Origin: Flavobacteriaceae bacterium
GTDB lineage: Bacteria; Bacteroidota; Bacteroidia; Flavobacteriales; Flavobacteriaceae
DNA: 64,000 nucleotides
Assembly: GCA_026709415.1 (NCBI GenBank)
Contig: JAPOSZ010000006.1
Location: 1-64,000, forward strand
Direction: 5' to 3'
Shown here piece after piece: positions 43,043 through 61,457 of this stretch. The position numbers and the translations under genes are program-made. Under the pieces are notes generated by a model that was not told the DNA's origin, did no database searches, and saw only the letters and a list, made by a program, of their open reading frames with translations. Numbering within the stretch: the stretch's first letter is position 1; the number at the start of each line of letters is the position of its first letter.

Positions 43043-43082
43043 AAAAATATAGGAATTACTACATACCAAAATGCCAAAAGGT
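43043..43082 (+). repeat. R element (R5)
   Basis: It begins ATAAAAATATAGGAATTAC and continues to ATGCCAAAAGGT. It aligns with R4 100 bases to the right (ATAAAAATTTAGGAATTAG, then AAGTGGCAAAAGTT) in the same orientation. It lies just upstream of the broken AAA copy 3, but in antisense orientation to it. Confidence 0.6.
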
Positions 43083-43142
43083 CTCATGGAAATACCAATT
43101 AGAGTGTATATTCGAGTAATTCGGTGAGATTAAACTACTCTA

Positions 43143-43181
43143 TAAAAATTTAGGAATTAGATACTAAAGTGGCAAAAGTTA
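43143..43181 (+). repeat. R element (R4), at the 3' end of the Fic gene
   Basis: ATAAAAATTTAGGAATTAG followed by ATACTAAAGTGGCAAAAGTT. Its inner end touches the stop codon of the Fic gene (43179-43181), so it would be the left end of a cassette containing Fic. No clear inverted partner was found to the right of Fic. Confidence 0.65.
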
Positions 43182-44090
43182 GTACGATACCTCCCCTTGG
43201 TAGGAGTTATCTTTGTCCAATATTCTTTCTTTTGTTTTTTCAAAACAAATTTCTTTTTGGGGAGATAATTGCTTTACTCTTGTTCTCAAAAATTTTTTAG
43301 TCTGATTTAGCATAAACGATTGAAAATACTTTAAATCATTGGTGTCTTGACTTTGGTATAAGGCTTTCCAATACTTCGGTTTATCACGCAATAAAATAAT
43401 GCTTAAAGTACATTGATGATAATGCTGTATGTAATTCATTAATAATCTTGATAAACGACTATTTCCATTAATAAACGGATGTATCGTGACCGTTTTTAAT
43501 TGTATCTCAAATGCAAAGTCGTAAATCTTAAAAATATCACCAGAGAATGTTTTGATTCGGCTATTGATATCTTCTACTAAACTCGCAACATGAGAAGGAA
43601 TCACATGAAAATCAATTCCAGATCGTCTGGGCTCAATCCCGTAACTCACATTGACTCTGCGAAAATGTCCTTTTCGTCCATCAAAAGTTCCATTTGGCGA
43701 TGGATACAATTTTTCTTCGTTTTTCAAAATGGTCGCAGATAAATCTTGGATCGTATCGACCGACAATTCTTTTTTTTGCTCTGCAAGTTCTAAGACAACT
43801 TTTAATGCTTCGTGATGATCTTCTAAGCGAGTAATATAATTGGGATGTTGAATGTTATCGGGATAAATTCCATGTTTTAATATCATATAAGTGTCGGCAT
43901 GGGAATAAGGAATCCCCTCTAATTTGCAACTATGATAAGTAATGGACATCTTATTGAAATCAATGTAATCACTATCGTATTGGGTTAGATCTAAATAACT
44001 ATTAGATAACGCAATAAATTTTTTTTTGTCCATCTCGACACCGAAAAATGATGTGTCTGGCAAAGTTAAAAAATCCTCATGGCTCCACAA
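43179..44090 (-). CDS. Fic-domain protein (probable AMP transferase, class II)
   Basis: 303 residues from TTG 44090; a later ATG at 44033 (MDKKKF) could also be the start. The catalytic motif reads HPFINGNSRLSR, where HPFxxGNGRxxR is standard; His and the Arg that hold the phosphates are kept, but Ser replaces the second Gly and Asn takes the acidic position. The N-terminal SCKLEG matches the inhibitory (S/T)xxxE(G/N) helix of class II Fic proteins. Such enzymes AMPylate protein hydroxyls. The altered motif may reduce or change activity. Neighbours are the broken AAA copy and IS debris. Confidence 0.8.
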   Translation of the reverse strand: MWSHEDFLTLPDTSFFGVEMDKKKFIALSNSYLDLTQYDSDYIDFNKMSITYHSCKLEGIPYSHADTYMILKHGIYPDNIQHPNYITRLEDHHEALKVVLELAEQKKELSVDTIQDLSATILKNEEKLYPSPNGTFDGRKGHFRRVNVSYGIEPRRSGIDFHVIPSHVASLVEDINSRIKTFSGDIFKIYDFAFEIQLKTVTIHPFINGNSRLSRLLMNYIQHYHQCTLSIILLRDKPKYWKALYQSQDTNDLKYFQSFMLNQTKKFLRTRVKQLSPQKEICFEKTKERILDKDNSYQGEVSY

Positions 44091-44449
44091 TCAGTGATTT
44101 ACGAAAAACACATCAAAAATAGCTGCACTATATTGTTCTCATTTCATCTATTCTTCGTGTGCGACTGACTATTAAAGCATGATTTGTATGCATTTAATGG
44201 AAATTTTACGATTGTCTAGCATCGGAGAAAAAGCCGAAAAACGGTTGATTGATGAACTTATACCAATTTGTGTTCTGTATTATTGTTACTTGATTCTCAT
44301 CTTATGGCCATCAAACTAAGCAGATACATTATGAAATACAAAGATTTTGTCCTAACTCTAAAAAGCAATTTAAAATGCAAATTAGTATTAGGAAGAACAA
44401 AATGTGATGACCCAAATGTCAATCGTGACCTATCCAACAACACGTAGGG
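44091..44449. other. Intergenic, no gene recognised
   Basis: About 360 bases upstream of the Fic gene without a recognisable coding or RNA feature. It merges into the IS1595-like relic. Confidence 0.4.
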
Positions 44450-45060
44450 CACCAAACAATGGCATATTGTTGTCTTGACGGTCCCAATAAAACGAAATTT
44501 TCTATTAAATCAAGTCCAGTGATAGGAAGCTTCCAAGTCGAGTTATCCGACATGGACTATTCTCATTTATTACAACACTAACCATGTTAAAGGCATATCA
44601 TCCGCTCGGTAATCCAAAGAACTGGGTCCCACACAAAAATCGGCTTAGTTTCTATTGCGACACATCCGATCGACTTTCGAAAGTAATAAAGAAAAACTCA
44701 AAGGAACTATTGAAGTTGATGAAACCGATTGGCGAATTATGAAAAAAATACCTTTAAAAAACGATTAGCATGACGCATATTAAGTTGAAGTGCCGTAGGG
44801 AGATTCTTTGTGAATGGGGTGAAATGCCGAGAAACCAACCAAATCATTGTGTATTCTACAAACATACGAATAGCGAAACACTTCATGAATTTAGAACAAT
44901 CATACAGCTGACGATAGCCACATTTATACTGATGCCGCACGTTGTTATTTCGGTGTTCTAAGAAATCATCAGGTGTTGAATCAACGGTAATACCAATTAG
45001 TTTTCTAAATGACTATTCCGAGATGTGGAAAAAAGATTAAAGACTTCTATTTTTCTCCAT
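44450..45060 (+). pseudogene. Heavily decayed IS1595-family (ISXO2-like) transposase
   Basis: Short segments in changing frames keep the order of an IS1595 DDE transposase. LKGTIEVDETDW (near 44700) corresponds to the first catalytic Asp region (usual form GxxExDExxxGG). HIYTDAARCYFGVLRNHQVLNQ (near 44920) corresponds to the second Asp region. Many stops and frameshifts lie between them. No ends or target duplication could be identified. Confidence 0.55.
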
Positions 45061-45434
45061 ACAGAGAAATCGCTTTTAACCCATGGGGTAGTTGATCTAT
45101 CAAATCTTTAAGTGTTTCAAACAGTTTGTTGTCCAGAAATTTTTCTCGAACTTCCGTCTATATCCGCTTGACAAGATATAGTCTCGATGAAGCAATCCTT
45201 CGGCTCGTTGATCAAACTCCTTTTTTCAATGGGATATTTGAACCAGACGAAATTCAAAACGACGAACGACTCACTACTAGTTACCGTGATGCTCTTTGGA
45301 GGCTTATTATACCACTTTATATTTGAATTCTAGAGTATGCCGTCATCGTTTCATATCACTAAATGTTCGCTATAAAATATAACTTAAGCCACTGTCCTAA
45401 TTTTAAGGACAGAACAGTGTGATAACTCATATGG
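45061..45434. other. Intergenic debris with an IS-like hairpin
   Basis: A 66-residue open frame (45126-45326) shows no known domain. CTGTCCT at 45392-45398 pairs perfectly with AGGACAG at 45406-45412 around a seven-base loop. This resembles the GGACAGT end noted at 4981. It could also act as a terminator-like hairpin, but no T run follows. Confidence 0.4.
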
Positions 45435-45902
45435 TTAATCAAAATTTAGACTTTGCTTTTTGATTCTTTCCAAATCTTTTTGAGTTTCTTTTTCTTTCAA
45501 CGCTTCTCTTTTATCATGTAGTTTTTTCCCACGTGCCAAGGCGATTTCTAATTTCGCAAATCCTTTGTTATTTATAAAGAGTTTGGTAGGGATTATGGTA
45601 TGCCCTTTAGTGGTAACTCTTCGAAATAAAACCCTCAATTCCTTTTTATTCAACAGAAGCTTTCGAGAATGTTTTGTTTTGTGATTGAAGTTGTAAGCAT
45701 ATTCATACGGTTCGATATGCATGTTGATGACAAATAACTCGCCCATTTTATTGAATTCACAAAAACTCTCAACGATAGAAACCTGCTTTAACCTAATGGA
45801 TTTGATTTCACTGCCAGTCAAAACAATTCCAGCGGTGTACTTTGAGAGAAGGTCATATTGAAATCGAGCTTTTCTGTTGACAACAATTGTAGAAGCTTTC
45901 AT
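45435..45902 (-). CDS. smpB: SsrA-binding protein SmpB
   Basis: 155 residues from the ATG at 45902 (MKASTIVVNRKARFQYDLL). It is the partner of tmRNA in ribosome rescue. Motifs: TAGIVLTGSEIKSIRLKQV, EPYEYAYNFNHKTKHSRKLLL, and the basic tail GKKLHDKREALKEKE that reaches the decoding site. The frame is open to 45974, but that extension is not part of the family. tmRNA itself is not in the window. Confidence 0.96.
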   Translation of the reverse strand: MKASTIVVNRKARFQYDLLSKYTAGIVLTGSEIKSIRLKQVSIVESFCEFNKMGELFVINMHIEPYEYAYNFNHKTKHSRKLLLNKKELRVLFRRVTTKGHTIIPTKLFINNKGFAKLEIALARGKKLHDKREALKEKETQKDLERIKKQSLNFD

Positions 45903-46006
45903 AATCTTGAAATCAAGAAACTGATGACTCAGTGAAGTAATCTCGTTATCGAATCCACAAAAGTAACCAACCATAAAGGGATTGGAAACCTATGGCGATC
46001 TCATGG

Positions 46007-48607
46007 TTATACGCTAGTCACTAAATCGAGAGGGGAAATTGTAAAGGAATCGTTTAGATAGTCAATCAATACGCCAGATTGGGAAAGTTCTGAACTTCTT
46101 ATCAGTTCTTTACTCAATGGGTTTAATATTTTTCGTTCAATCGTTCTTTTGACTGGTCGGGCACCATACTCTGGTTCAAATCCTGTTTTGGCAATAGCCT
46201 TTCGAGCATTTTCACTAACCTTAACGGTTAACTCAGCTTTGATTTTTTCAATGACTCGATTAATTTGAATATCTACAATTTGAAAGATTTCATCAAACGT
46301 TAATGGTGAAAACATAACAATATCATCGATGCGATTTAAAAATTCGGGTCTAATGGTTTGTTTTAAAAGCTTCAGCACATGATTCCTTGCGTCTCTTTCA
46401 GCCTCTTCAAAGTCTTCAATCGTACCAAAAGAGGCCATGATTAAATCAGAACCTAAATTGCTCGTCATGATGATGATGGAATTGCGAAAATTGGCGATTC
46501 TCCCTTTGTTGTCGGTTAATCTACCTTCATCCAATACCTGAAGTAATACATTAAACACGTCTGGATGGGCCTTTTCAATTTCATCAAGCAAAATCACGGA
46601 ATAGGCTTTTCTGCGGACCGCTTCGGTTAACTGTCCTCCTTCATCATAACCAACATAGCCAGGTGGGGCGCCAACCAACCTGCTGACCGAGTGCCGTTCT
46701 TGATATTCGCTCATATCAATGCGAGTGATGTTTTTCTCGTCATCAAAAAGGACTTCTGCGAGTGACCGAGCTAATTCTGTTTTTCCGACCCCTGTGGTCC
46801 CTAGAAACAAAAAACTTCCGATGGGTTTGTTGGCATCTTGTAATCCCGCTCGAGATCTTCGCACGGCATCACATACTTTTTGTACGGCTTCATCTTGTCC
46901 GACCAATCGTTTAAAAATATGGGTTTCCAAAGAGAGCAGTTTTTCTTTTTCAGTTTGTAATAATTTGGCTACAGGTATTCCAGTCCATTTAGCTACAATT
47001 TCGGCAATATCATCATAGACGACAACTTCAGTAATCAAAGGATTATTCGATCGGATTTGGGTTATCTGTTCTTGAATGGTTTCCACTTTGATTTGCTGTT
47101 CTTTCAGTTTACCATATCGAATTTCAGCCACTTTAGCATAATCCCCTTCTCTTTCAAAGCGATCGGCTTGAAGTTTCAAATGTTCAATTTCTTGCTTGGT
47201 GGATTGAAGTCGATCGATTAATTCTTTTTCTTGACTCCATCGAGCATAAAGTTCAGATCGCTCTTCTTTTAATTCAGCTAAAGTACTTTTTAATTTGGTG
47301 ATTTTTTTCTGATCTTTTTCTCGAATAATAGCGGCCAATTCTATTTCAAGTTGACGAATTTTACGATCTAATGAATCCAACTCCTCGGGTTTTGAATTGA
47401 TTTCAATTCTCAATTTTGAGGCCGCTTCATCAATTAAATCGATGGCTTTATCAGGAAGAAATCGATTGGAAATATAGCGATCGGATAAGGTTACCGCACC
47501 GATGATAGCATTGTCTTGAATGCGCACCTTATGATGCGCTTCATATTTTTCTTTGATGCCCCTCAATATTGAAATCGCATCTTCTGTAGACGGTTCATCA
47601 ACGATCACTTTTTGGAATCGTCTTTCCAATGCTTTGTCTTTTTCGAAATATTTTTGGTATTCATCTAGGGTGGTCGCCCCAATGGCTCGGAGGTTCCCTC
47701 GAGCCAGTTCGGGTTTCAAAATGTTGGCGGCATCCATAGCTCCATTATTGGCTCCGGCTCCAACCAAGGTGTGAATTTCATCGATGAACAAAATGATACG
47801 TCCATCGCTTTTGGTCACTTCTTTAATCACACTTTTAAGTCTTTCTTCGAAATCACCCTGAAATTTTGCACCAGCAATCAAACTACCCATATCTAGAGCA
47901 TAAACAACTTTTTCTTTTAGGTTTTCTGGGACATCTCCATTGATGATACGATGCGCCAAGCCTTCAGCAATCGCTGTTTTTCCCGTTCCGGGTTCGCCAA
48001 CTAAAATGGGATTGTTTTTCGTTCTTCGAGAAATGATTTGTAATAATCTTCGAATCTCATCTTCACGTCCGATGACGGGATCTAATTTATTTTCTGAAGC
48101 CAATTGGTTAAGGTTTTTTGCGAATTTTTCAAGGGCTCGATAATTGGACTCTGCATTAGGCGAGGTCACTTTCTCGCCCTGTGAAAGCTCTTTAAGGGCA
48201 CTTTTTAAAAATCGCTTACGCACCCCTTGTACTTTTAGCATTTTACCCACTTCTGTATTGGAATCCAGAAGGGCTTCAATCAAGTGCCCAGCAGTTACGT
48301 ATTGATCGCTTTGTTCTTTGGCTATCGATGCCGCAGTAGACAAGATTTGATATAGTTCCATGGACACAACACTTTCTTTGTCAAATACTTTGGCTATGCT
48401 TTTAATCAATAAATCATTTTCTTGTTTGATTCTATGGATGTCGATACCGATTTTTTCAAAGACAACAGGTAACACATTCGCATCAATTTTTATCATAGAA
48501 TCCAAAAGATGTTCTGCTTTGGTCTCCTGGTGATTCAATGATTTTGCCAACACCAAAGATTGATTCAAAATCTCTTGTGCCTTTAATGTCAAATCATTCA
48601 CATTCAT
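46007..48607 (-). CDS. clpB: ATP-dependent disaggregase ClpB
   Basis: 866 residues with the full ClpB layout: N-domain, first AAA module with Walker [11 protein letters not shown], a middle coiled coil (about residues 410-520), and second AAA module with Walker [11 protein letters not shown] and the ClpB sequence [22 protein letters not shown]. It rescues aggregated proteins with DnaK. The coiled-coil M-domain separates it from ClpA and ClpC. It is divergent from glyA across a 339-base gap. Confidence 0.97.
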
Positions 48608-48946
48608 TTTGATTTACAGTTTTATAAAAGTTACAACACTTTAATTTCAATTATTGTACCAATGCCATAAAGCGACAAATTGTCAGTCATTTAAAATAAT
48701 GATTAATCTTTTGAAAAACAACATTTTATAAATAATATTTTGAGTTACTGTTGAACTATTATATCTAGAAAGGAAGCCATGTTTTATCGACTTTCCAATA
48801 AAATGTCAATCGGAAATAATCTGTGGTTGATTCAAATCTTATGGCTTTATTTGATGAGTTAAATGTTTAATTTTCAAGAGATTTAATCCTTATATTGATG
48901 CTTAAAAATTTACTTTTGACATCCAACTTCAATCGTATTTACAGTG
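48608..48946. promoter_or_regulatory. Divergent clpB/glyA promoter region
   Basis: 339 AT-rich bases between two divergent genes. TTTTGACATCC near 48914 followed by TATTTAC about 20 bases on is a plausible -33/-7 pair for glyA. I do not recognise a CIRCE or HAIR site for clpB. Confidence 0.4.
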
Positions 48947-50215
48947 ATGGATGCCGAACTATTTTCTCTCATAGAAGCTGAAAAAAAAAGACAAACAGAG
49001 GGTATTGAACTCATCGCCTCAGAAAACTTTACTTCTCAGAATGTCCTCAAGGCCACCGGTTCGATTTTGACTAATAAATATGCCGAAGGATATCCTGGAA
49101 AGAGATATTATGGGGGGTGTCAAATAGTCGATCAAATCGAACAATTAGCCATTGATCGGGCCAAAGAATTATTCCATGTGCAATTTGCTAATGTTCAACC
49201 TCACTCGGGATCTCAAGCTAACACTGCCGTGTATTCTACATTTTTAAAACCTCATGATTCCATTCTTGGATTTGATTTAGCTCATGGTGGTCATCTCACC
49301 CATGGTTCACCCGTTAATTTTTCAGGTTTGCTGTATGATGCCCATTTTTATGGCGTGGATAAAAAATCAAATACTATCGATTATGATTTATTGGAATCAA
49401 AAGCCAAGAGTGTCAAACCTAAATTAATTATTGCGGGAGCTTCAGCATATCCAAGGGATATTGACTATGAAGCATTCGGAAGCATTGCGGACAAAGTTGG
49501 CGCGACATTACTGGCCGATATTTCTCATCCAGCTGGTTTAATTGCCACAGGGTTGTTGAATAATCCGTTTCCGCATTGTCATGTGGTGACCACCACGACT
49601 CATAAAACATTGCGAGGCCCTAGGGGAGGCGTTATCTTGATGCACAAAGACTATGAAAATCCTTTTGGTTTAAAATTCAAGAATGGTAATCTCAGAAAGA
49701 TGTCTCACTTGATCAATATGGCCGTTTTTCCTGGTAACCAGGGAGGCCCTTTGGTCCACTCCATTGCAGGAAAGGCGGTTGCTTTTAAAGAAGCTCAAAC
49801 AGAAGATTTTAAAATATATGCCATGCAGGTCCAAAAAAACGCAAAAGCACTGGCCGAGTCATTTATCGAAAGAGATTACCATTTGGTTTCTGGTGGTACC
49901 GATAATCATTTGATGTTGATTGATTTGAGAAATAAAAATATCACAGGAAAACAAGCCGAAGAAACACTAGAAAAAATTGAAATAACGGTCAACAAAAATA
50001 TGGTTCCGTTTGATGATCAGTCTCCTTTTGTTACATCGGGAATTCGAATTGGAAGCCCCGCTATGACAACCCGCGGGTTAAAAGAAAATCATATGGATCA
50101 AATTGTTGATTTTATAGATCAGGGACTAACACATATGAATAATGAATCCAAATTAAACGCGATTGCCATAGAGGTCAATCGATTTATTTCGCCTTTCCCA
50201 TTGGTCAATCTGTAA
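48947..50215 (+). CDS. glyA: Serine hydroxymethyltransferase
   Basis: 422 residues. It interconverts serine and glycine with tetrahydrofolate and PLP. The N-terminal [32 protein letters not shown] and the PLP lysine region [14 protein letters not shown] are all intact. ATG 48947 is used; a GTG three bases earlier is the only alternative close by. Confidence 0.97.
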
Positions 50216-51684: not shown

Positions 51685-51724
51685 TCAAATTGAGCTGTTG
51701 GTGGTTTTCTTCGGATAAGTCATG

Positions 51725-52912: not shown

Positions 52913-52924
52913 ACTTTTCAATTC

Positions 52925-53734
52925 ATGTCGCAAGTTGTATTAATTACGGGTGCTTCTTCTGGATTGGGTCTCACGACGGCTCAGTACTTGGCGCGTAACG
53001 GATACATCGTTTATGGAACATCACGATCTCCTCAAAAATATGCTGGCATTACAGATTTTCAACTACTAAAAATGGATGTTACATCTAAAGAATCGATAAA
53101 AAAATGTGTGGATCAAGTCCTCCAGTCTGCTGGAAAAATAGATGTGCTTATTTGCAATGCGGGTTTAGGAATGATAGGGCCATTAGAATCTGTTGATCCT
53201 AAGAGTGTTGAAACTTTATTTCAGACCAATGTCATGGGAGTCTTATCGGTCATTCAAGAAGTGTTGCCATCCATGAGACAATCTGGTAGTGGATTTATAT
53301 TAAATATTTCATCCATTGCTGGATATATGGGATTACCTTATCGAGGCATTTATTCGGCAACGAAGTCGGCATTGGATAAATTGACCGAATCATTGCGTTT
53401 AGAGGTCATGGAATTTGGTATCAAGGTGTCCGCTTTGGCTCCTGGTTCATTTGCTACACCAATTACAAACCGAAGAGTCACCGTTGATATCGATGAATCT
53501 TCTCCATATCATCATACGTTTCACCGGATTCACAAAAAAATTGATCAAGATGTTAATCAGGGGGGAAATCCCCATGATGTTGCAAAGGAGATTTATAAAA
53601 TCATCCAGAAGAAAAAGCCTAAAATTCATTACCGGGTGGGGCCATCACTTCAAAAACTATCGATACGCTTAAAAGATATTCTACCTGGAAAGACTTATGA
53701 AAGATTATTAAAAAACCATTATCAATTGAAATAG
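52925..53734 (+). CDS. SDR-family oxidoreductase
   Basis: A 269-residue classical short-chain dehydrogenase/reductase. The nucleotide motif is TGASSGLG at the N-terminus, then CNAGLG, the catalytic Ser in NISSIAGYMG, and YSATKSALDK with the Tyr and Lys. It will use NAD(P)H; the substrate is not known. It starts 12 bases after the SRP RNA. Confidence 0.9.
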   Translation: MSQVVLITGASSGLGLTTAQYLARNGYIVYGTSRSPQKYAGITDFQLLKMDVTSKESIKKCVDQVLQSAGKIDVLICNAGLGMIGPLESVDPKSVETLFQTNVMGVLSVIQEVLPSMRQSGSGFILNISSIAGYMGLPYRGIYSATKSALDKLTESLRLEVMEFGIKVSALAPGSFATPITNRRVTVDIDESSPYHHTFHRIHKKIDQDVNQGGNPHDVAKEIYKIIQKKKPKIHYRVGPSLQKLSIRLKDILPGKTYERLLKNHYQLK

Positions 53735-53771
53735 GGAATGATATTCAATAGTGTCAAAGGTTGTTCAAAGT
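53733..53771 (+). repeat. R element left of AAA copy 4 (R7)
   Basis: AGGGAATGATATTCAATAG followed by TGTCAAAGGTTGTTCAAAGT. The inner part GTGTCAAAGGTTGTTC matches R6 upstream of AAA copy 5 (GTGACAAAGGTTGTTC). It starts at the SDR stop codon, lies about 45 bases upstream of AAA copy 4, and has an inverted counterpart (R11) after that gene. Confidence 0.7.
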
Positions 53772-53817
53772 ATGAGAAAATTTGTATTTTTAAGAATCAA
53801 AGACACTTCGTCAAATA

Positions 53818-54927
53818 ATGAGAGATCGAGGAGAAGCCGAATTTTTTCGTGGGCGTCAAGAGCCATTAGAAGCTTTTGATCAATTAGTTGTGAAGGCGGA
53901 AAGAGAAAAATCAGGAACGATTTTTTTAGTACAAGGGGCACCAGGCGTTGGGAAAACAGCTTTTTTAGAAGAATGCAAAAAAAGAATCAGTAAAGAAACT
54001 TGGGACGCTGTTTGGTGTGATCCTGATGTATTGTGGGATGTTCATGAACTGCGAAAATCATTAAGATTAGGCGATCAAATTCAACTTGTCAAATCGTTCG
54101 TTCAATTAGGAATCGAGAATTTAATTAAAATAGGAGCCTATTTCCAATTAGCGGACCGAACCATCATTGGGAGTATTAATCAAAGAAGAAAAAAAAGAGG
54201 GTTAATGTTAGTAATTGATGAAATTCAAGATTTAGGAAAAAAAGCATCACCCCCAGACAAAGCTGCACAGAGAAGGGTTCGAAACACGTTATACCAGATG
54301 CATAATTGGCGAATGAAAAACCCCTTTATTCTTTTAGTTGGCGGACTAGGCATGTCCAAAAGTGTGTTGAAGCAATATGGTATTTCGAGATTTAATAATG
54401 ATTGTGATTTTAACCTTGGTACATTAGATAAAAAATCAGAAACAGAAATTATTAAACAGTATATGACGAAAAAGGGAGGTGTTCATGAAAACAATCCAAA
54501 TTTCAATCATTGGATGAATGCCATTGTAAAAGAAACACATGGCTGGCCTCATCATATCACCAATTATGGCAATATTTTGTCTGAATATTTAAAAGAAAAC
54601 CATCATGTGTTAGATGATAAAGGATTGAAATGCATTGTAAAACAAGGAACCAAAAAACGATTTCAGTATTATCAAAGAAGGGTGGAGGATTTAGATATTG
54701 AAGAAAGAAGATTCATCGCCTCTTTATTACTGAAAAAGAAATCGCAACGATCAAAAAATGACATCATATCCTTTTTTCAAAATACATTGAACCGTCAACA
54801 ATCAAAAGAGCTTTTTGATATGGCATTAGAAAAAGGAGTGTTTCATCAAAATGAAGAAGGTGAATATGTTGTGCCAATTCCATCGATGCAAACTTGGATA
54901 TTGACTAAATTTGGTGATCAAGAATGA
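53818..54927 (+). CDS. AAA ATPase paralogue (copy 4)
   Basis: 369 residues. Motifs in order: EAEFFRGRQEPLEAF, Walker A GAPGVGKT (residues 40-47), Walker B LMLVIDEIQ (about 128-136), LLVGGLGMSKSVL...SRF, GWPHHITNY, a KKRFQYYQRRVEDL helix, and the C-terminal VPIPSMQTW. The catalytic motifs are intact, so ATP hydrolysis is expected. It sits alone between an SDR gene and fsa, bracketed by R7 and R11 in opposite orientation. The housekeeping neighbours and bracketing suggest it arrived as a unit. The role is unknown; phage defence or regulation are guesses. Confidence 0.75.
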   Translation: MRDRGEAEFFRGRQEPLEAFDQLVVKAEREKSGTIFLVQGAPGVGKTAFLEECKKRISKETWDAVWCDPDVLWDVHELRKSLRLGDQIQLVKSFVQLGIENLIKIGAYFQLADRTIIGSINQRRKKRGLMLVIDEIQDLGKKASPPDKAAQRRVRNTLYQMHNWRMKNPFILLVGGLGMSKSVLKQYGISRFNNDCDFNLGTLDKKSETEIIKQYMTKKGGVHENNPNFNHWMNAIVKETHGWPHHITNYGNILSEYLKENHHVLDDKGLKCIVKQGTKKRFQYYQRRVEDLDIEERRFIASLLLKKKSQRSKNDIISFFQNTLNRQQSKELFDMALEKGVFHQNEEGEYVVPIPSMQTWILTKFGDQE

Positions 54928-55112: not shown

Positions 55113-55147
55113 GATAACCTTTGACCCCTTATATAATTCATTAAAAT
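55113..55147 (-). repeat. R element right of AAA copy 4 (R11)
   Basis: On the minus strand it reads TGAATTATATAAGGGG then TCAAAGGTTATC. It shares GAATTATATA with R1-R3 and TCAAAGGTTRT with R6 and R7, and faces R7 across AAA copy 4. It also lies just upstream of fsa, so part of it could belong to the fsa promoter. Confidence 0.6.
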
Positions 55148-55155
55148 AAAAAACC

Positions 55156-55809
55156 ATGAAATTTTTTATCGATACGGCAAATCTGACCCAAATTGCTGAA
55201 GCCCAGGAATTAGGGTGTTTAGATGGTGTCACCACCAACCCCTCCCTAATGGCCAAAGAAGGCATCAAAGGACACGATAATGTGATGCAGCATTATCAGG
55301 ATATATGCACAATCGTTTCGGGAGATGTTTCGGCTGAAGTGATTTCGGTTGACTTCGATGGAATGGTTAAAGAAGGAAAAGAATTAGCCTCAATAAATCC
55401 TCAGATTGTTGTTAAAGTTCCCATGATTGAACAAGGGGTTCGGGCATTACGATATTTTACGGATAATGGCATCAGAACTAATTGTACTTTAGTCTTTTCA
55501 GTTGGTCAAGCTCTTTTAGCTGCTAAAGCTGGAGCATCGTATGTTTCTCCTTTTATCGGTCGAATAGATGATATATCGAGTGATGGTTTGGCATTGATAG
55601 AAGAGATTCGTTTGGTTTATGACAATTATGGTTTTGAAACCGAAATTTTAGCGGCTTCCATTCGCCATACGATGCATATTGTCCATTGTGCTAAAATTGG
55701 GGCCGACGTCATTACGAGTCCACTCAGTGCCATCAAAGGTTTGCTAAAACATCCTTTGACAGACATTGGATTGGAAAAGTTCCTTTCCGATTACAGAGAA
55801 TCACAATAA
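55156..55809 (+). CDS. fsa: Fructose-6-phosphate aldolase / transaldolase
   Basis: 217 residues, the short TalC/FSA type of transaldolase. The Schiff-base lysine is in QIVVKVPMIEQG. MKFFIDTANLTQIAEAQELG, DGVTTNPSLMAKEG, and the C-terminal ADVITSPLSAIKGLLKHPLTD are diagnostic. It moves a dihydroxyacetone unit or cleaves fructose 6-phosphate; sequence alone does not separate the two activities. Confidence 0.93.
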   Translation: MKFFIDTANLTQIAEAQELGCLDGVTTNPSLMAKEGIKGHDNVMQHYQDICTIVSGDVSAEVISVDFDGMVKEGKELASINPQIVVKVPMIEQGVRALRYFTDNGIRTNCTLVFSVGQALLAAKAGASYVSPFIGRIDDISSDGLALIEEIRLVYDNYGFETEILAASIRHTMHIVHCAKIGADVITSPLSAIKGLLKHPLTDIGLEKFLSDYRESQ

Positions 55810-56230
55810 ATCAATCGTCTATGGATATTGATAGTCCATTAGATTATCGATTATTCTTAAAGAAATACGGTTTCAAGTATTGGCCTTCTCAAGCATTTCT
55901 AAAAAAGAGGGGATAGACAAGCAACATGAGTCAAATGTTTTTTAATCTCTTGAATGGCAAGTTCAAGCCTCTAGTGCATGATCGATCAACGAGATAAAAT
56001 CTCATCGTTACGTAGAGGATTTATTAAGTCATATTGTGATGCTTCCTTGGATACCATTAGATTGGGTTCAACTATTGATCATAGGTCATGTTTTGAATGT
56101 TTTGAAACACATGAATTCCCTTGTAAATCCAGGCCCATCCATAGTTGAATTAGGGTTATTCACATTGCACTGAATCGTTGAATTTGTCATAGGGCCAAAA
56201 AAATCACGAGTTTTTCATCTTTATCGAGTC
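55810..56230. other. Intergenic, no gene recognised
   Basis: About 420 bases with stops in all frames. No IS, RNA or promoter feature stands out. Confidence 0.5.
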
Positions 56231-56290
56231 ATAAAAATGAGGCATTATCTATAAAAGTGACAAAGGTTGTTCCAAATAAACAATACTTCT
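56231..56290 (+). repeat. R element left of AAA copy 5 (R6)
   Basis: ATAAAAATGAGGCATTATC followed by AAAAGTGACAAAGGTTGTTC and then CAAATAAACAATACTTCT. The first part aligns with R4, the middle with R7, and the last with R8. It thus links all the other copies and gives the longest version of the repeat (about 60 bases). It ends 54 bases before the AAA copy 5 start. Confidence 0.75.
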
Positions 56291-56344
56291 GCCAAATACA
56301 TGTTATCTCATTGAAAACCATAGAATCTTCTTAATTTTAACAAT

Positions 56345-57553
56345 ATGTTTGAACGAGGAAAGGCAGAATACTTTCACGGTAGAGAAACAGAACAAGTCTT
56401 TTTCAGGAATGCTTTGGAAAAAGCAAAAAATAAAAGCTTAGGAACCTCATTTTTGATTCAGGGCTCGCCTGGTGTTGGGAAAACAGCACTGCTTGAAAAA
56501 TGCAAAGAAATTGCTCTAGAAAAGAAATGGGGTGTTGTTCAAATAAAACCCGATGGACTATGGGATGCAGAACAATTGAAAAAATATCTAAAAAAAGAAT
56601 GGAAAATAAAATTGGAAGGAATCAACGCAAAAGCAGCTGTACATGGCATTGGTGTCGAGGCTAGCTTTTCATTTACCGAAAAATCTGTTTTACAGGTTTT
56701 AAATTCAAGTAAAAACCCCTTATTATTAGTATTAGATGAAGCCCAGCACTTAAAATCAATCACCAAAGCTGATTTTCTATTTCAAGATTCGGTGAGAAAA
56801 GTATTAGATGAACTTCATAATGGAGGGTTTAAGAAACCGTTACTTTTTGCTATTGGTGGTTTAGGTCATACCATAAACATTTTTGAGCAGTTAGGCGTTT
56901 CAAGATTCGATGGGGATTTTGTGTTTGATTTAGAAGCATTGGATAAGATATCTGAAAGAAATATCATAAGGGATTTTATTTACAAAGAAGGTGGCTTGAG
57001 TCCAACAATAGGGTGTGATTTGTGGATTAATAAAATTTCCAAGCAAACACATGGTTGGCCTCAACATATTTCCGCTTATGGATACTCCGTATCAAATTAC
57101 TTGAAATATAAAGCAAAAAATATGAAGGGCAAACAATTGACTGAAGATGGATTAGATGATGTATTGAAAGACGGTTCACGAAAACGATTTAAGTACTATG
57201 AAAAAAGAGTCGCCTCTTTCACCAAACAAGAAATTAAAAGTTTTGTAGAGGTTTTAGATAAGAATAAACCACTACTACCAATGAATTATGAAGATATCAT
57301 TAATTCTTTTCAAAAAAAGTATACACTAAAAAAATCCGAAAAATTGTTTGAGAATGCCAATGAAAAAGGCGTTTTTCATCGGATTCCAGATGGGAGTTAT
57401 ATTATTCCAATTCCTTCGATGCATCATTGGTTTGTGTCAGGAGATTGGCAAGTAAAAGCAGAAAACTTGAAAAGAAAAGAAAAAGAGGATTTAGAATCGG
57501 TTCGATATATTCCTGCCTTTATCAATTCCGAAAAAACTTCCAAGAAAAAATAA
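56345..57553 (+). CDS. AAA ATPase paralogue (copy 5)
   Basis: 402 residues. Motifs in order: KAEYFHGRETEQVFF, Walker A GSPGVGKT (residues 40-47), Walker B LLLVLDEAQ (about 126-134), LFAIGGLGHTINIF...SRF, GWPQHISAY, RKRFKYYEKRV and the C-terminal IPIPSMHHW. It then has a charged tail of about 35 residues ending in lysines. All motifs are intact. Bracketed by R6 (left) and a weaker R10 (right). No partner gene is adjacent. Confidence 0.75.
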   Translation: MFERGKAEYFHGRETEQVFFRNALEKAKNKSLGTSFLIQGSPGVGKTALLEKCKEIALEKKWGVVQIKPDGLWDAEQLKKYLKKEWKIKLEGINAKAAVHGIGVEASFSFTEKSVLQVLNSSKNPLLLVLDEAQHLKSITKADFLFQDSVRKVLDELHNGGFKKPLLFAIGGLGHTINIFEQLGVSRFDGDFVFDLEALDKISERNIIRDFIYKEGGLSPTIGCDLWINKISKQTHGWPQHISAYGYSVSNYLKYKAKNMKGKQLTEDGLDDVLKDGSRKRFKYYEKRVASFTKQEIKSFVEVLDKNKPLLPMNYEDIINSFQKKYTLKKSEKLFENANEKGVFHRIPDGSYIIPIPSMHHWFVSGDWQVKAENLKRKEKEDLESVRYIPAFINSEKTSKKK

Positions 57554-57600
57554 CGAAAAAGATTTTACCCTTTGAAACCATAGGCCAGTTTGAATTAATA

Positions 57601-57644
57601 TAACTAAAGTTATAAATTTAGTGTCTAATTATTTGATTTTCAAT
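57601..57644 (-). repeat. Weak R element right of AAA copy 5 (R10)
   Basis: On the minus strand AATAATTAGACACTAAATTT aligns with R4 (GGAATTAGATACTAAAGTGG) over ATTAGAYACTAAA; the inner end is diverged. Its orientation opposes R6, as expected for a right-hand end. Confidence 0.4.
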
Positions 57645-58039
57645 AGATTTTTTTTGAAAAACAGATGACTTAAATTTACTTAATAAATGTTCTACTAAGG
57701 GGCACTTCACAACAGCAAATAGATTTGAAACTAAAAGGAAAGAAAAAAGTAGTTGCGATTCATTTGGCGATGTCCCCATAAGGACTTCATATAAATGAAT
57801 AAAAATGGTTAACTTGAACTGCGAAGTTTTGGGTCTAAAGATGGGGAGCATCACAATATAAATGGACAAATTGAATGGAGAACCATGAATTATATTAAAG
57901 GAAATAATATACTACGAATGAGACTGTAGAACCGCATAGAACTAGCAAACTATGGATACCAAAACCTAAGTAAACAAATAGTAGTAAGGTCGAACTAGAA
58001 GAACCTATTATAAGGGGAATAAATCTAAAAATAACAACA
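57645..58039. other. Intergenic, no gene recognised
   Basis: About 395 AT-rich bases. A minus-strand open frame at 57618-57869 has no recognisable domain. Confidence 0.4.
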
Positions 58040-58396
58040 ATGAATGTCACTAAGGATGATATAAAAGAATTAAGATCACTGATACAGAGTTCTAATAAGG
58101 AATTAAGATTACTGATACAGAGTTCTAATAAGGAATTAAGAGAACAGATACAGAGTACTAATCAGGAATTAAAAGAAATATCCAATAAGGTTAATGATAC
58201 CTATACAGAGGTACAAGTACTTAAAACAGAAATCAAGTACCTTAGAAAGGATGTAAAGAGCCTAGAAACAAATACAGAACCTATACAACAGGAACTAAAG
58301 CTACAAAAGAATAATATACGTTGGATAAGAATTGCAGGGGGATTTTTAGCACTTTTGTTGGCGGGATTATTAGTAAAAGCAATAGCAGCGTTTTAA
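58040..58396 (+). CDS. Small coiled-coil protein with C-terminal membrane anchor
   Basis: 118 residues. Residues 11-43 consist of three 11-residue repeats of the type LIQSSNKELRx, which predict a parallel coiled coil. More helix follows to about residue 95, then one transmembrane segment (IAGGFLALLLAGLLVKAIAAF) at the very end, so a tail-anchored topology is likely. No known family is recognised. The next two small ORFs have a related helix-rich character. Confidence 0.65.
   Translation: MNVTKDDIKELRSLIQSSNKELRLLIQSSNKELREQIQSTNQELKEISNKVNDTYTEVQVLKTEIKYLRKDVKSLETNTEPIQQELKLQKNNIRWIRIAGGFLALLLAGLLVKAIAAF
58070..58168 (+). repeat. Three tandem 33-bp repeats within the coiled-coil gene
   Basis: Units at 58070, 58103 and 58136. 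The first two differ at one base; the third is more diverged. Each encodes 11 residues, keeping the frame, so unit number can change without breaking the protein. Confidence 0.9.
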
Positions 58397-58446
58397 GAAC
58401 AAAATCAATACACAGCACTATTGTTATTGAAAGTTTGAAATTAACC

Positions 58447-58545
58447 ATGAAGCCAATGAATGATAATAACACAAAACAGATACTAACCGCTATAGAAAGT
58501 GTAAAAACCCATACAACAAAACAGGTGAAAATTGTAAAAGTTTGA
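58447..58545 (+). CDS. Possible 32-residue helical ORF
   Basis: Starts MKPMNDNNTKQILTAIESVK. The pattern QILTAIESVKTHT resembles the starts of the neighbouring small helical ORFs (LLEAINKNTDKL at 58576 and TLLDAIKSNSKAI at 62388). It may be the truncated front of such a gene. Confidence 0.35.
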   Translation: MKPMNDNNTKQILTAIESVKTHTTKQVKIVKV

Positions 58546-58575
58546 TGGACATAAAAGCCAACTGATTAGAAAACA

Positions 58576-58805
58576 ATGAACCAACGAAAAGTAACCAATA
58601 GAGAGCTATTAGAGGCTATTAATAAGAATACCGATAAATTAGATGGAGAGGTATTAAAGAGGTTAGATAATATAGAAAAAGAGATAAAGGGAATGAATGG
58701 TAAGATAACAAGTAACGCAAGGATATTTATTGGATTAAAAGAATAGGGATATTTGTTGTAGTGGTTATGGGGACAGCTGTAGGCTATTTTATAAACAAAT
58801 CATAA
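58576..58805 (+). pseudogene. Small coiled-coil/membrane protein, frameshifted
   Basis: The frame from ATG 58576 (MNQRKVTNRELLEAINKN) ends at TAG 58744-58746. In another frame the reading continues at once as RIGIFVVVVMGTAVGYFINKS to a stop at 58803, which is a perfect membrane anchor. Restoring the frame gives a protein of about 75 residues with the same plan as the 58040 gene: helix then C-terminal span. Confidence 0.55.
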
Positions 58806-58872
58806 GTAATACAGAACAATTGCTGTTGAAAAAATGAAAACAATTAAAAATAGTTCATCAAATTATATTTTA

Positions 58873-59640
58873 GGGTTCTATCACGATTGGTGTGGATAGA
58901 GTTTTAATCCACCACAGAAAAATAAGACCGCCGATCGGAAATTTTCAAACTTTCGATATCCTCTGGCCACGGTTTTGATTGGTTGGATTTTCCCATTGAT
59001 GCGCTCGGCTCTGGCATGGGATGGTTTGGAAGCTAGCGCATTAATAATCCCATCGAGATGTCTTTGGAACATCTTGGCCACGTCCATGACTTCTTGGATG
59101 CCCGTCGCTATCACCTCATCAAGCCATGTCGCCCGACGCTTTCTAGCTGATTTCAAATGCTTCGCCTGGAAAATAGCCTTAAAATCTTCACGACACTGCC
59201 AAGCCTTACCCCGAATTATTCATACTCCTTGATAGAGAATCAATAGCATCAGGATTAGAGTTTCAAGATGCTTTGGATCCCCTTTTCAACAAATCACGCC
59301 ATCCTATTCTCTTGATCGATGGCTTTTGTTCTCCAAAAAGCATCTTTTGCAGTCCCTTTCGACCATATTTTGTTCTTTCAAGGCCAGGTTGGACCCTATG
59401 GGCCATCCCCATTCATGAAAAAGAGAAGATAATGGTGTTGGTTGATGGCCCAGCTAAGTGAATCAGAGATTTTTGAAGAGTTCCTGATGCACCAAACTCT
59501 TGGAACATGGAATCACCATGCTCGATTTTTTGATGTGGACGATGGCCGCCCTCTTCAATAAAAACAACCGAATGTGATCGATTGGCCAACTCTTGGCTCT
59601 TTTTAACCCGACTTTTTACCAATAATTTTCGTTTAAACGC
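58873..59640 (-). pseudogene. Remnant of an ISL3-family transposase
   Basis: The intact part (58881-59156) is the C-terminus of an ISL3 transposase: SHARAERINGKIQPIKTVARGYRKFENF and LFFCGGLKLYPHQ. Upstream to about 59640 the coding trace is broken by stops and frame changes. GGTTCTATCACGATTGGTGT directly after the 3' end looks like an ISL3 terminal repeat. No matching end was found on the other side, so the element is truncated. Confidence 0.75.
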
Positions 59641-59758
59641 TTTTTGTACAGTCTTTTAAGGACTATTTTGCTCTTTTCAACTTGTATATTGTTGCCATGT
59701 CAATACAATCTATTTTGATATTTATTTCTTTTTATTCAATCTATTGGCTATTATTTTG
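59641..59758. other. Short intergenic with a possible repeated motif
   Basis: TGTCAATACAATCTATTTTGA at about 59698 resembles TGTCAATACAATTTTATTTAG at about 61479, outside R3. The two copies flank the R1-R3 region in the same orientation. Confidence 0.35.
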
Positions 59759-59785
59759 GGAATTATATACTTAAGTAACAAAAAC
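59759..59785 (+). repeat. R element (R1)
   Basis: GGGAATTATATACTTAAGTA followed by ACAAAAA. It is nearly identical to R2 and R3. Its inner end faces the 46-residue ORF and the HNH remnant. Confidence 0.8.
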
Positions 59786-59834
59786 CACCCGATTTTTCAG
59801 CTGCATCATATTATCAGGCATGATGGATGGGGCG

Positions 59835-59975
59835 CTACTTTTTAAATCTCGGCATGGGACGAAATGCTCTTCTTAACAATTCTTCGGGTGTGGTATCAAT
59901 GCGGACATCTTCTTCCAATTCCGCTTTGTTGGGTTGGTAGTCGTAGGGTTTAACTTTTGGTTTTTTAGATTTCAT
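59835..59975 (-). CDS. Small conserved-looking protein, 46 residues
   Basis: Reads MKSKKPKVKPYDYQPNKAEL, then DVRIDTTPEELLRRAF and a basic C-terminus. The pattern (basic Pro-rich start, KxELE-D-xIDxTPEEL-xRAxxRP) is one I have seen in small bacterial proteins next to toxin or restriction genes. It lies 28 bases downstream of the HNH remnant on the same strand. Role unknown. Confidence 0.65.
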   Translation of the reverse strand: MKSKKPKVKPYDYQPNKAELEEDVRIDTTPEELLRRAFRPMPRFKK

Positions 59976-60003
59976 TATATGATGATGAATTATTAACACA
60001 AAG

Positions 60004-60560
60004 TTAAAGATTAAAAAAGAATTTTAAATGTTCATTCAACCAATTTTTTATTTTTTGTTTTACTGATTCATGAGCTTTTTTAACAAGTTCAACATTAGCT
60101 GCCGATTTCACTCGACCATATTCATCAAATGTGACTTTATCTTTATATGCTTTATTACAAAATTGACATTGGGGAATATAGTCTTCTTTACTTTTCGCTA
60201 CATGTGGATCTTTATGTCCTTTTTCTAATTTAACAATTTCTTTGTAAAAACGGTGTTTTTCTCCCTCTCTTTCACCACAAGTTGCACATCTATAATCATA
60301 AATTTTTTTTATTTCATCAAATTCAGGACGATTTATACGAATTTGATCTAAATGTTGTTTTTGAATAAAAACTTCTGAAGGTTTTAAAGGATTTAATTTG
60401 AAATATCCTCTTCTATTTTCAGGATCTTCTATTTCCCAACCATCTCTTTTTAAATGTCTTACTTGAGTATCTAAATTAGCATCTGGTAAATATTCCCTAA
60501 CAATTTCAGAAACATCATCTTTATGAATACTTTCATCTTTATAGTAATGTAATAAAGAAA
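60004..60560 (-). pseudogene. HNH endonuclease, 5' end cut off at R2
   Basis: About 185 residues starting at PLSLLHYYKDESIHKDDVSE. The first part is a winged-helix-like region (LDTQVRHLKRDGWEI). Then comes a zinc-finger HNH nuclease with CATCGEREGEKHRFYKEIVK, LEKGHKDPHVAKSKEDYIPQ and CQFCN. It would cut DNA and may be a restriction enzyme or mobile-element nuclease. The frame continues past 60561 (to 60756), but that portion is antisense to the neighbouring cassette, including R2 itself. So the natural start appears to be lost, unless a non-standard start near 60555 is used. Confidence 0.65.
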
Positions 60561-60590
60561 GGGGAATTATATACTTAAGTGCCAAAAAAA
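60561..60590 (+). repeat. R element (R2), left end of the TA cassette
   Basis: GGGGAATTATATACTTAAGT followed by GCCAAAAAAA. It is an inverted match of R3 (61431-61457) over about 27 bases with only a one-base gap or mismatch. It interrupts the 5' end of the HNH gene. Confidence 0.85.
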
Positions 60591-60628
60591 GATCCAATTT
60601 TTTGTATTTATGGTTGTCCGATTTCAAG

Positions 60629-60799
60629 ATGATGTTATGTGTTAGTATTGATCCGAAAGATGAGAATAGGTTGAAGGATTTCGTTAGAACATCAGGAACA
60701 GCTAAATTGAAACCGTTAACACACCAAGTGTTATTGGAACGGGCTAACGAAATCAAAAAAAACGGTTTTGAATGGGACTATAGTGGTTATGAATTCTAA
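60629..60799 (+). CDS. Small ORF at the head of the TA cassette
   Basis: About 56 residues from ATG 60629 (MMLCVSIDPKDENRLKDFV); the frame is open to 60602. C-terminal EIKKNGFEWDYSGYEF. No family recognised. Its stop overlaps the next start by 11 bases, so the three cassette genes are coupled. It could be part of the antitoxin function. Confidence 0.5.
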   Translation: MMLCVSIDPKDENRLKDFVRTSGTAKLKPLTHQVLLERANEIKKNGFEWDYSGYEF

Positions 60800-61006
60800 T
60801 CAAAAACATTTTTTTATCGATATTGACGAAACCGAAATGGGGGGGGGCATGAACAGGCTATTAAAAACCAATTTCCCCATGCGATGGTGGATGTTCTTGA
60901 AAAAGAAGACATCATTCATGTTGTTGAAATGAGAGAATCGATGCAGGAGGTGGTGGATCATCAATTAGGCATTCAAGAAATCCCTCGTGATCCATTCTTT
61001 TCTTGA
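60789..61006 (+). pseudogene. Antitoxin-like ORF, out of frame at a G9 tract
   Basis: It begins MNSNQKHFFIDIDETEM, then meets nine Gs at 60839-60847. As written, the frame ends at TGA 60930-60932 (47 residues). One more G, or two fewer, would restore a 72-residue reading: HEQAIKNQFPHAMVDVLEKE and on to IPRDPFFS, ending at 61006 and overlapping the toxin start by 20 bases. The position directly before a RelE-like gene suggests an antitoxin or a third component. I do not recognise the family. Confidence 0.5.
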
Positions 61007-61385
61007 GTATACGATTTACCGAACACCAAAGGCAGATCGACAAATACAAAAAATAATCAAACAATATCCTACATTTCAATCTGTTTTTAAAAAAACATTG
61101 AAATCTTTTTTAGCTTTTCCAGATACTCGTCAATCGTGGATTAAACAATTAAATAAGAATACGTATTCGATTCGTATAGGAACGGGATCATGTGGGAAAA
61201 GAGGGGGTTTAAGAAGTGTTATCTTCACGATTAGAGAAAATCAAGAGTTGTACATTGTTGGCATTGATAAAAGATATCAGGAAAAAGACTTAAATCGACT
61301 TTATGAACCTTCTATCATTGAGAATATAGTGCATCAATCGATTCAAGATAAAACAAGGATGGAAGATCCTTTGTTTAAAAGATAG
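60987..61385 (+). CDS. RelE/ParE-like toxin
   Basis: 132 residues starting at GTG 60987. The core matches the RelE/HigB plan: an N-terminal helix pair (DRQIQKIIKQYPTF), IRIGTGSCGKRGGLRSVIFT (usual pattern GKxGGxRxIY) and LYIVGIDKRYQEKDLN, where KSEQED-like residues occur in homologues. Such toxins cut mRNA on the ribosome or poison gyrase. The C-terminal extension of about 25 residues is unusual. It is the last gene of the cassette, before R3. Confidence 0.7.
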   Translation: MIHSFLEYTIYRTPKADRQIQKIIKQYPTFQSVFKKTLKSFLAFPDTRQSWIKQLNKNTYSIRIGTGSCGKRGGLRSVIFTIRENQELYIVGIDKRYQEKDLNRLYEPSIIENIVHQSIQDKTRMEDPLFKR

Positions 61386-61430
61386 TTTTTTTTGGGAGGG
61401 GTATCGATTTCAAACTATGATTTTTAATTA

Positions 61431-61457
61431 TTTTTGGCACTTAAGTATATAATCCCC
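61431..61457 (-). repeat. R element (R3), right end of the TA cassette
   Basis: On the minus strand it reads GGGGATTATATACTTAAGTG followed by CCAAAAA. It faces R2 across 897 bases (outer to outer). No target-site duplication is evident in the flanks. Confidence 0.85.

What the first reader, a model, noticed from the sequence alone, without database searches (positions are those of the whole stretch)
43043..61457. A dispersed repeat (R) brackets accessory genes like shared cassette ends
About ten imperfect copies were found by eye. The outer half is GGAATTATATACT and the inner half AAGTGNCAAAGGTTGTTC. Outer ends point away from the gene in R7/R11 around AAA copy 4, R6/R10 around AAA copy 5, and R2/R3 around the toxin cassette. 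R1 ends the HNH region and R4 touches the Fic stop. All cargo is of the defence or conflict type. No transposase is encoded between the ends, so mobilisation in trans, or a regulatory meaning of R, must be considered.
Basis: partly seen in the sequence, partly recalled or inferred. Interest (0 to 1): 0.8.

Follow-up and report, generated by a model that had tools for sequence, protein, structure and literature searches.

The report
Transposase-less mobile defence-gene cassettes
The repeat is the end of a jumping-gene family (IS1595 type) that in this bacterial genus often carries a single toxin-antitoxin or defence gene instead of its own transposase, and a near relative shows the same cassettes sitting in different places.

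Summary
R is real and is a transposon end. In the window R1-R4 score 31-42 with a matrix trained outside it (highest of 100 shuffles 16.0); R6 and R7 are borderline; R10 was not found. R occurs 34 times in the genome (control 0) and in 2 of 99 genomes searched, own included. R pairs are terminal inverted repeats: 13 elements in 407 kb of fetched own DNA have matching ends and an exact 8-bp target duplication; reversed control 0. Twelve of the 13 hold no transposase; cargoes are AbiEii-, MNT/HepT-, Fic- and RelE-like units, an ORC-like AAA ATPase, and TnpB. The same 25-nt end bounds an IS1595-family transposase with restriction-modification cargo. A congener has empty sites and relocated copies: one cassette differs by 1 substitution and 2 gap bases in 1628 yet sits elsewhere with its own duplication. 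The window's RelE cassette (60562-61457) also lies elsewhere there, matching exactly end to end, and is the uninterrupted form of a copy that a second cassette entered. Best reading: mobile insertion cassettes moved in trans by IS1595 transposases.

The parts
60562..61457 (+). RelE-like toxin-antitoxin cassette bounded by R2 and R3 (896 bp), no transposase
   Evidence: 94% identical copy (845/896) at a different place in G001 (C151:18908-19793); the match runs exactly from terminal GGG to CCC. No duplication at this copy (AAAGAAAG vs TTTTGTTT, 0 of 8).
60562..60586 (+). R2, left terminal inverted repeat
   Evidence: matrix score 40.8, shuffled maximum 16.0
61433..61457 (-). R3, right terminal inverted repeat, identical over 25 nt to the ends of the IS1595 element C151:56-3993 of G001
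   Evidence: score 42.1; C151 ends
60987..61385 (+). RelE/ParE-like toxin ORF (132 aa)
   Evidence: Pfam RelE E=0.0037 and ParE_toxin E=0.033, both below curated cut-off
60632..60799 (+). small ORF upstream of the toxin; the next small ORF before the toxin differs from the G001 copy by a length change at a G-run, which seems to shift its frame
   Evidence: read from sequence and alignment
61093..61204 (+). uninterrupted insertion site of the nested MNT/HepT cassette C33:5851-6888
   Evidence: C33 flanks minus element and one 8-bp copy match here 98.2% over 112 bp
59758..59782 (+). R1, lone end, probably of a broken larger element
   Evidence: score 35.7; the 200 bp inside it resemble the left end of the IS1595 element C151 (81 bp, 87.7%) and other R-ended places in G001
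   Evidence: ORF list; no Pfam hit over cut-off; weak PtuB hit E=0.004
43152..43176 (+). R4, lone end next to the Fic stop; partner not found
   Evidence: score 31.2; partner test reached by 5.8% of shuffles
43179..44090 (-). Fic protein; Fic genes are cargo of intact cassettes at G000 C27:58133-59406 and G001 C129:9717-11110
   Evidence: Pfam Fic 9.8e-08
7478..9303 (-). AAA ATPase cassette (1826 bp); ends 7478-7502 and 9279-9303, duplications TTATCAAA at 7470-7477 and 9304-9311
   Evidence: ends 25/25 identical, exact 8-bp duplication; absent from G001 C39, with a 14-bp indel at the site
7979..9058 (-). AAA ATPase gene, cargo of the 7478-9303 cassette
53734..53758 (+). R7, borderline R-like site upstream of AAA copy 4 (53818-54927)
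   Evidence: score 13.9
55116..55142 (-). R11, weak gapped R-like site downstream of AAA copy 4
   Evidence: gapped score 14, reached by 0.4% of shuffles
56240..56264 (+). R6, borderline R-like site upstream of AAA copy 5 (56345-57553)
   Evidence: score 11.2
   Evidence: score 16.1
58881..59156 (-). ISL3-family transposase remnant beside R1; not taken as the transposase of R
   Evidence: PF01610 4.3e-17

Best explanation
R is the terminal inverted repeat of an IS1595-family transposon lineage. Two inverted R copies around one short accessory operon make a transposase-less transposon (a mobile insertion cassette). IS1595 transposases encoded by larger elements with the same ends act on R in trans, move the cassette, and insert it at A/T-rich sites with an 8-bp duplication. 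Shown: the ends, the duplications, the cargo, transposase elements with the same ends, empty sites, relocated copies and a nested insertion. Inferred: that this transposase moves these cassettes, that movement still goes on, that lone R sites in the window are decayed cassettes, and that the cargo is kept because it protects or addicts the host.
For: Pattern GGGRATTATATACTTAAGTGNCAAA: 34 matches in own genome, 0 in control. 13 own elements with matching ends (15 or more of 25) and exact 8-bp duplication, 0 in the reversed sequence (14 listed, one dropped because its duplication is AAAAAAAA), and 9 in the G001 stretches examined (no control run there). IS1595 transposase within R-type ends: G000 C21:68990-72326, G001 C37:4334-7906 and C151:56-3993; both Pfam domains found in C21 and C151. 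C151 ends are identical over 25 nt to window R3. Own genome has a transposase of that type at C13 (325 identical residues of 333 aligned to C151) with R at C13:1517. Empty site for C23:109342-110263 in G001 C69, 95.5% over 112 bp with one copy of the 8 bp. C23:112532-114159: empty site in G001 C74 (81% over 106 bp) and a copy with 1 mismatch and 2 gap bases in 1628 at C40 with a different duplication. AAA cassette C19:22980-24336 differs at 10 of 1357 bases from G001 C128:16560-17916, with a different duplication. Window RelE cassette elsewhere in G001. Nested MNT/HepT cassette in the C33 RelE copy, window copy uninterrupted. Family traits (8-bp duplications, Zn ribbon, DDE_Tnp_IS1595; GG ends for the related Merlin elements) agree with passages of PMC8101967; A/T-rich 8-bp duplications with passages of PMC12561309.
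Against: The window's own R2-R3 copy has no duplication (0 of 8), and its G001 copy has one only with a 3-nt offset. Five of the 15 adjacent outward pairs in G000 lack an unshifted exact duplication, one of the five having it with a 2-nt shift. Strict ends plus duplication were found for only 4 of 117 AAA loci examined; two are the same cassette in two genomes and one has ends of another type. Five of the nine IS1595 search loci of own genome show no R-like site within the fetched flanks. Some insertions are shared by both genomes and so are old (C12:289468-290268, same duplication in G001). At the empty site of 7478-9303 there is a 14-bp indel. Both genomes are drafts and several R copies sit near contig ends. 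No transposition was observed.
Confidence: 0.88

Rival explanations
1. R is a promoter or regulatory motif shared by accessory genes.
For: The borderline R6 and R7 lie 46-67 bp upstream of AAA genes in the same orientation.
Against: R pairs face outward above shuffled orientation, many are followed by exact 8-bp duplications, and whole units including R are absent at empty sites.
Confidence: 0.03
2. The cassettes are internally deleted or replaced relics of autonomous IS1595 elements and no longer move; differences between the genomes reflect old insertions and loss.
For: R1 looks like the broken end of a larger element; a 471-bp internally deleted AAA cassette exists (G001 C25:7937-8407); several insertions are shared.
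Against: A cassette with only 1 mismatch and 2 gap bases in 1628 at two different sites with different duplications and a nested insertion with exact duplication imply that the cassettes themselves moved, one of them recently.
Confidence: 0.12
3. A different transposase, for example ISL3 (remnant at 58881-59650), moves the cassettes.
For: ISL3 stretches are common (17 matches), one lies beside R1, and 8-bp duplications also fit ISL3 (recalled).
Against: None of the elements with exact duplications covers an ISL3 match, whereas three cover IS1595 transposases.
Confidence: 0.04

Closest known systems
Mobile insertion cassettes (MICs; IS231-MIC231 of Bacillus cereus, De Palmenaer 2004, content recalled; term and trans activation in passages of PMC3129680)
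   Same: IS ends enclosing passenger DNA without a transposase, which a related intact IS in the genome can activate.
   Different: IS1595 instead of IS231; several different defence or toxin-antitoxin cassettes with related ends in one genome, nesting, and relocation between congeners.
IS1595 family with passenger genes (Siguier, Gagnevin and Chandler 2009; only its title seen in reference lists; content recalled)
   Same: Zn ribbon plus DDE_Tnp_IS1595 transposase, 8-bp duplications, passenger genes.
   Different: Passengers here are restriction-modification systems that differ between elements with 91% identical transposases; most exact elements lack a transposase gene.
TIMEs and mosaic non-autonomous Tn3 transposons (PMC4133298, passages)
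   Same: Transposase-less elements, movement in trans, A/T-rich targets.
   Different: Tn3-derived ends and 5-6-bp duplications there; 8 bp and IS1595-type ends here.
Mobile integron cassettes (recalled)
   Same: Small gene units reshuffled within a genome, often toxin-antitoxin or defence genes.
   Different: Inverted repeats with target duplications at scattered sites instead of attC sites in an array.

Membership tests
IS1595 family | transposase with DDE_Tnp_IS1595 and zinc-ribbon domains in an element with these ends | tested here: met
   C21 (L114) and C151 (L168) transposases: DDE 3e-38 and 7.6e-39, Zn ribbon 7.8e-08 and 2e-08; holds for the autonomous elements, not for the cassettes
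IS1595 family | 8-bp target duplications | tested here: met
IS1595 family | terminal inverted repeats starting GG | tested here: met
   one end starts GA (C12:289468) and one GC (C17:120198); the GG trait is stated for the related Merlin elements in PMC8101967
IS1595 family | own transposase inside the window cassettes | tested here: not met
   60562-61457 and 7478-9303 show no transposase ORF
Mobile insertion cassette (MIC) | IS ends around passenger genes, no transposase | tested here: met
Mobile insertion cassette (MIC) | cognate IS with the same ends in the genome | tested here: met
   C13 transposase with R at C13:1517; complete copy C151:56-3993 in G001. The C13 element runs off its contig.
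Mobile insertion cassette (MIC) | movement in trans shown by experiment | not testable with these tools
   only comparative evidence
MITE | short, non-coding element | tested here: not met
   window cassettes are 896 and 1826 bp and coding; G001 C25:7937-8407 (471 bp) comes near it
Integron cassette | no target duplication, array of cassettes at one site | tested here: not met
   8-bp duplications and scattered sites
Integron cassette | attC sites and integrase | not tested
   not searched

The most novel reading that the evidence does not exclude
In this genus an IS1595 lineage has become a dedicated exchange platform for immune genes: a few transposase elements carrying interchangeable restriction-modification systems supply transposase to a larger pool of one-operon conflict cassettes with graded versions of the same ends, so that the immune repertoire is reshuffled by transposition instead of by islands or integrons.
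Probability: 0.35. Interest if true: 0.78.

Novelty: new variant of a known kind. Interest (0 to 1): 0.62.

Why it matters
Defence and toxin-antitoxin genes are known to gather in islands and prophages (recalled); here single units ride on bare IS ends, which would explain scattered orphan defence genes and gives a sequence tag (R) for finding the set. Two near genomes give direct empty and filled sites, so whether one transposase serves many cassettes, and whether cargo is chosen for conflict functions, becomes testable. One cargo is an AAA ATPase family with 34 near-full-length matches in this genome.

Tried and rejected
Promoter reading of R: rejected by orientation and empty sites. ISL3 as the driver: no exact element covers an ISL3 match. 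AAA genes as a transposition helper of the TniB/TnsC kind: considered because of weak TniB hits; the predicted fold (pLDDT 87.5) is nearest to ORC/Cdc6 and archaeal SSO1545-type ATPases, with NLR and Apaf-1 among the first 50, and cassettes without AAA move too, so AAA is taken as cargo. General bracketing of AAA genes by R: not supported (4 of 117 loci strict; an earlier scan with shorter flanks found 1 of 79). R in other organisms: 0 of the 97 other genomes searched have the 25-mer; L215 (CAR4_bin_2) holds an R-like element with an exact duplication and L228 a weaker one, not followed. Empty site for the window RelE cassette at its window position: not obtained, because G001 diverges at 59706 into other sequence. 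PADLOC was run once; PHROGs and NCBIfam were not run. Eight print searches, of which the listings were seen, showed no title or abstract start describing IS1595-type cassettes with toxin-antitoxin or defence cargo; only open PMC text is held. Passages were seen of PMC3129680, PMC4444841, PMC4133298, PMC12561309 and PMC8101967; no paper was read whole.
Full report
What was checked. The window is contig C4:1-64000 of a 2.66-Mb, 34-contig genome, here G000, G+C 35.8%. A matrix trained on 30 R sites outside the window gives R1 35.7, R2 40.8, R3 42.1 and R4 31.2; the highest score in 100 Markov windows was 16.0. R7 (13.9) and R6 (11.2) are borderline; R11 needs a gap; R10 was not found.

Genome-wide. 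The 25-mer GGGRATTATATACTTAAGTGNCAAA with up to 3 mismatches occurs 34 times in G000, 0 in the reversed control. The outer 13-mer with up to 1 mismatch occurs 73 times (control 5) and 96 times in the congener G001 (control 5). Of 99 genomes searched, own included, 2 have the 25-mer (34 in G000, 39 in G001) and 97 do not, a third congener G002 among them. Neighbouring 13-mer sites 0.3-6 kb apart face outward, + then -, in 15 of 27 cases in G000 and 17 of 33 in G001 (the reverse order 4 and 9); shuffled orientation gives means of 6.8 and 8.3, reached by 1 and 0 of 2000 shuffles.

Anatomy. In 80 merged stretches (407 kb) of own DNA, inverted pairs were examined for flanking 8-mers. A scan that asks for ends matching at 15 or more of 25 and an exact 8-bp duplication lists 14 elements in G000 (0 in the reversed sequence) and 9 in the G001 stretches (no control for G001). 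I drop one of the 14 (C27:139977-140900, duplication AAAAAAAA). The 13 are: C4:7478-9303 (AAA, in the window), C19:22980-24336 (AAA), C21:68990-72326 (IS1595 transposase, methyltransferase and a third ORF), C27:58133-59406 (Fic), C10:54212-55527, C23:22963-24280 and C30:28763-30084 (TnpB), C12:287227-288646 and C23:112532-114159 (AbiEii-like), C12:289468-290268, C23:109342-110263 and C33:5851-6888 (HepT with a nucleotidyltransferase-like partner), C33:5539-7478 (RelE-like, holding C33:5851-6888). Two more have the duplication with a shift (C17:127918-129324, C21:237910-239433). C10:98125-100232 and C17:118146-120198 carry AbiEi/AbiEii pairs without an exact duplication. Cargo names rest on Pfam where tested: AbiEii 8.7e-10, 1.3e-06 and 4.2e-27, AbiEi_3 2.2e-24 and 4e-34, HepT-like 3.9e-20 and 6.3e-16, nucleotidyltransferase 2.8e-15, Fic 8.3e-13 and 2.3e-09, Cas12f1-like TNB 1.6e-16. 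The partner ORF of HepT at C23:109342 and the ORF upstream of AbiEii at C23:112532 had no hit. The C12 cargoes and C21:237910 were named by eye from their ORFs, the RelE hits are below cut-off, and the cargo of G001 C142:73-3064 is unassigned.

The transposase. Own genome has 9 matches to DDE_Tnp_IS1595; R-like sites lie in the fetched flanks of 4 of the 9 loci (L134, L135, L137, L139) and not of the other 5. Three complete elements have such a transposase within R-type ends and exact duplications: G000 C21:68990-72326 (TTAAAAAA), G001 C37:4334-7906 (AAAAGTTT) and G001 C151:56-3993 (CAAAAAAA). Both Pfam domains of the family were found in C21 and C151 (C37 was not scanned). The C21 and C37 transposases share 310 of 340 residues and nearly the same ends but different cargo: an N6/N4 methylase in C21, a C5 methylase with an NgoFVII-type protein in C37; C151 carries a type IIG-like enzyme. 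The ends of C151 equal window R3 over 25 nt. In G000 a transposase sharing 325 residues with that of C151 (333 aa) sits at C13 with R at C13:1517, the element running off the contig.

Mobility. G001 is a congener whose contigs include lengths 68295, 23174 and 14654, the lengths of three records titled Flavobacteriaceae bacterium isolate CAR1_bin_5. (1) C23:109342-110263: in G001 C69 the two flanks meet with one 8-bp copy, 95.5% over 112 bp. (2) C23:112532-114159: flanks meet in G001 C74 (81% over 106 bp), and a copy with 1 mismatch and 2 gap bases lies at C40 with duplication AAAAATAT instead of TTAAAAAT. (3) AAA cassette C19:22980-24336 (CGTTTTTT): a copy differing at 10 of 1357 bases at G001 C128:16560-17916 (TAAAAAAT), between two further R copies. 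(4) The window RelE cassette: 94% copy at G001 C151:18908-19793, the match starting and ending exactly at the terminal GGG/CCC. (5) C33:5851-6888 lies with an exact 8-bp duplication inside the RelE-like gene of a second copy of the window cassette; the window holds the uninterrupted site (98.2% over 112 bp). (6) The window AAA cassette 7478-9303 is absent from G001 C39, with flanks of 91% and 88% and a 14-bp indel at the site. Against this, C12:289468-290268 has the same duplication in G001 (shared insertion), C17:118146 and C17:127918 have counterparts with the same flanking 8-mers, and the region of AAA copies 4 and 5 is co-linear in both genomes at 98.7%.

The finding's region. R2-RelE-R3 is a cassette. 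The missing right part and missing duplication of R2-R3 suggest a deletion next to R3 (inference). R4 beside the Fic stop is a lone end; Fic is a cargo of intact cassettes elsewhere. A small gene ahead of the toxin seems frameshifted in the window copy; the G001 copy differs there.

AAA family. The window gene 56345-57553 has 61 matched stretches in own genome, 34 of them near full length by my count of the rows covering 350 or more of 402 residues. In G001 46 matches were scored of 85 candidates; 38 other relatives have none. A capped collection scan with the family alignment returned 79 loci, from Flavobacteriaceae CAR1_bin_5, Rhodothermales and other Bacteroidetes, and a few Gammaproteobacteria, Pseudomonadales and Rhodobacteraceae MAGs; that bin names such as CAR, COS and RHO mean sponge sources is recall, not a call. 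The model has pLDDT 87.5; its nearest solved folds are ORC/Cdc6 and SSO1545, with NLR and Apaf-1 ATPases further down. Strict ends plus duplication were found at 4 of 117 AAA loci, control 0.

Verdict. The elements work like mobile insertion cassettes of IS1595 type and meet the features tested, except that movement in trans is not shown by experiment. What is new, as far as the print searches went, is the scale and content: in one genome seven exact toxin-antitoxin or Fic cassettes, two AAA and three TnpB cassettes beside one transposase element; restriction systems that differ on a 91% identical transposase; nesting; and relocation between two near genomes.

Noticed in passing
G000 C10:54212-55527, C23:22963-24280, C30:28763-30084 (loci L115, L116, L117); G001 C144:38127-39448 (L160): TnpB is the only long ORF of R-type elements with exact 8-bp duplications (in C23 it is split in two frames); in the intact copies its last codons reach into the terminal repeat. 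Worth a guide-RNA study.
   Followed up: partly
window 5890-57553 and genome-wide: An ORC/Cdc6-like AAA ATPase family with 34 near-full-length matches here, many in one congener, none in 38 other relatives, and relatives mainly in other Bacteroidota and Rhodothermales MAGs.
   Followed up: partly
L203 2681-4670: A Rhodothermaceae MAG has an AAA gene inside a different type of terminal repeat (GGTTCTACCG...) with 8-bp duplication AAATATTT: the gene may ride on several transposon types.
   Followed up: no
G000 C21:68990-72326 and G001 C37:4334-7906: IS1595 transposases sharing 310 of 340 residues, nearly the same ends, different restriction-modification systems.
   Followed up: partly
L215 5434-6836; L228 2813-5596: R-like elements with exact 8-bp duplications in MAG CAR4_bin_2.
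   Followed up: no
window 59840-59976 (-) and G001 C18 (L184): A small ORF with a TPEELLRRAF motif just inside R1, also in a G001 locus and, diverged, in L042.
   Followed up: no
window 61830-64000: Related small membrane-protein-like ORFs in tandem and a DUF285 repeat lipoprotein (4.6e-58) downstream of the cassette.
   Followed up: no
G000 C13:1487-2068 (L134): The C13 IS1595 element appears to interrupt an ORF that looks Fic-like by eye.
   Followed up: no
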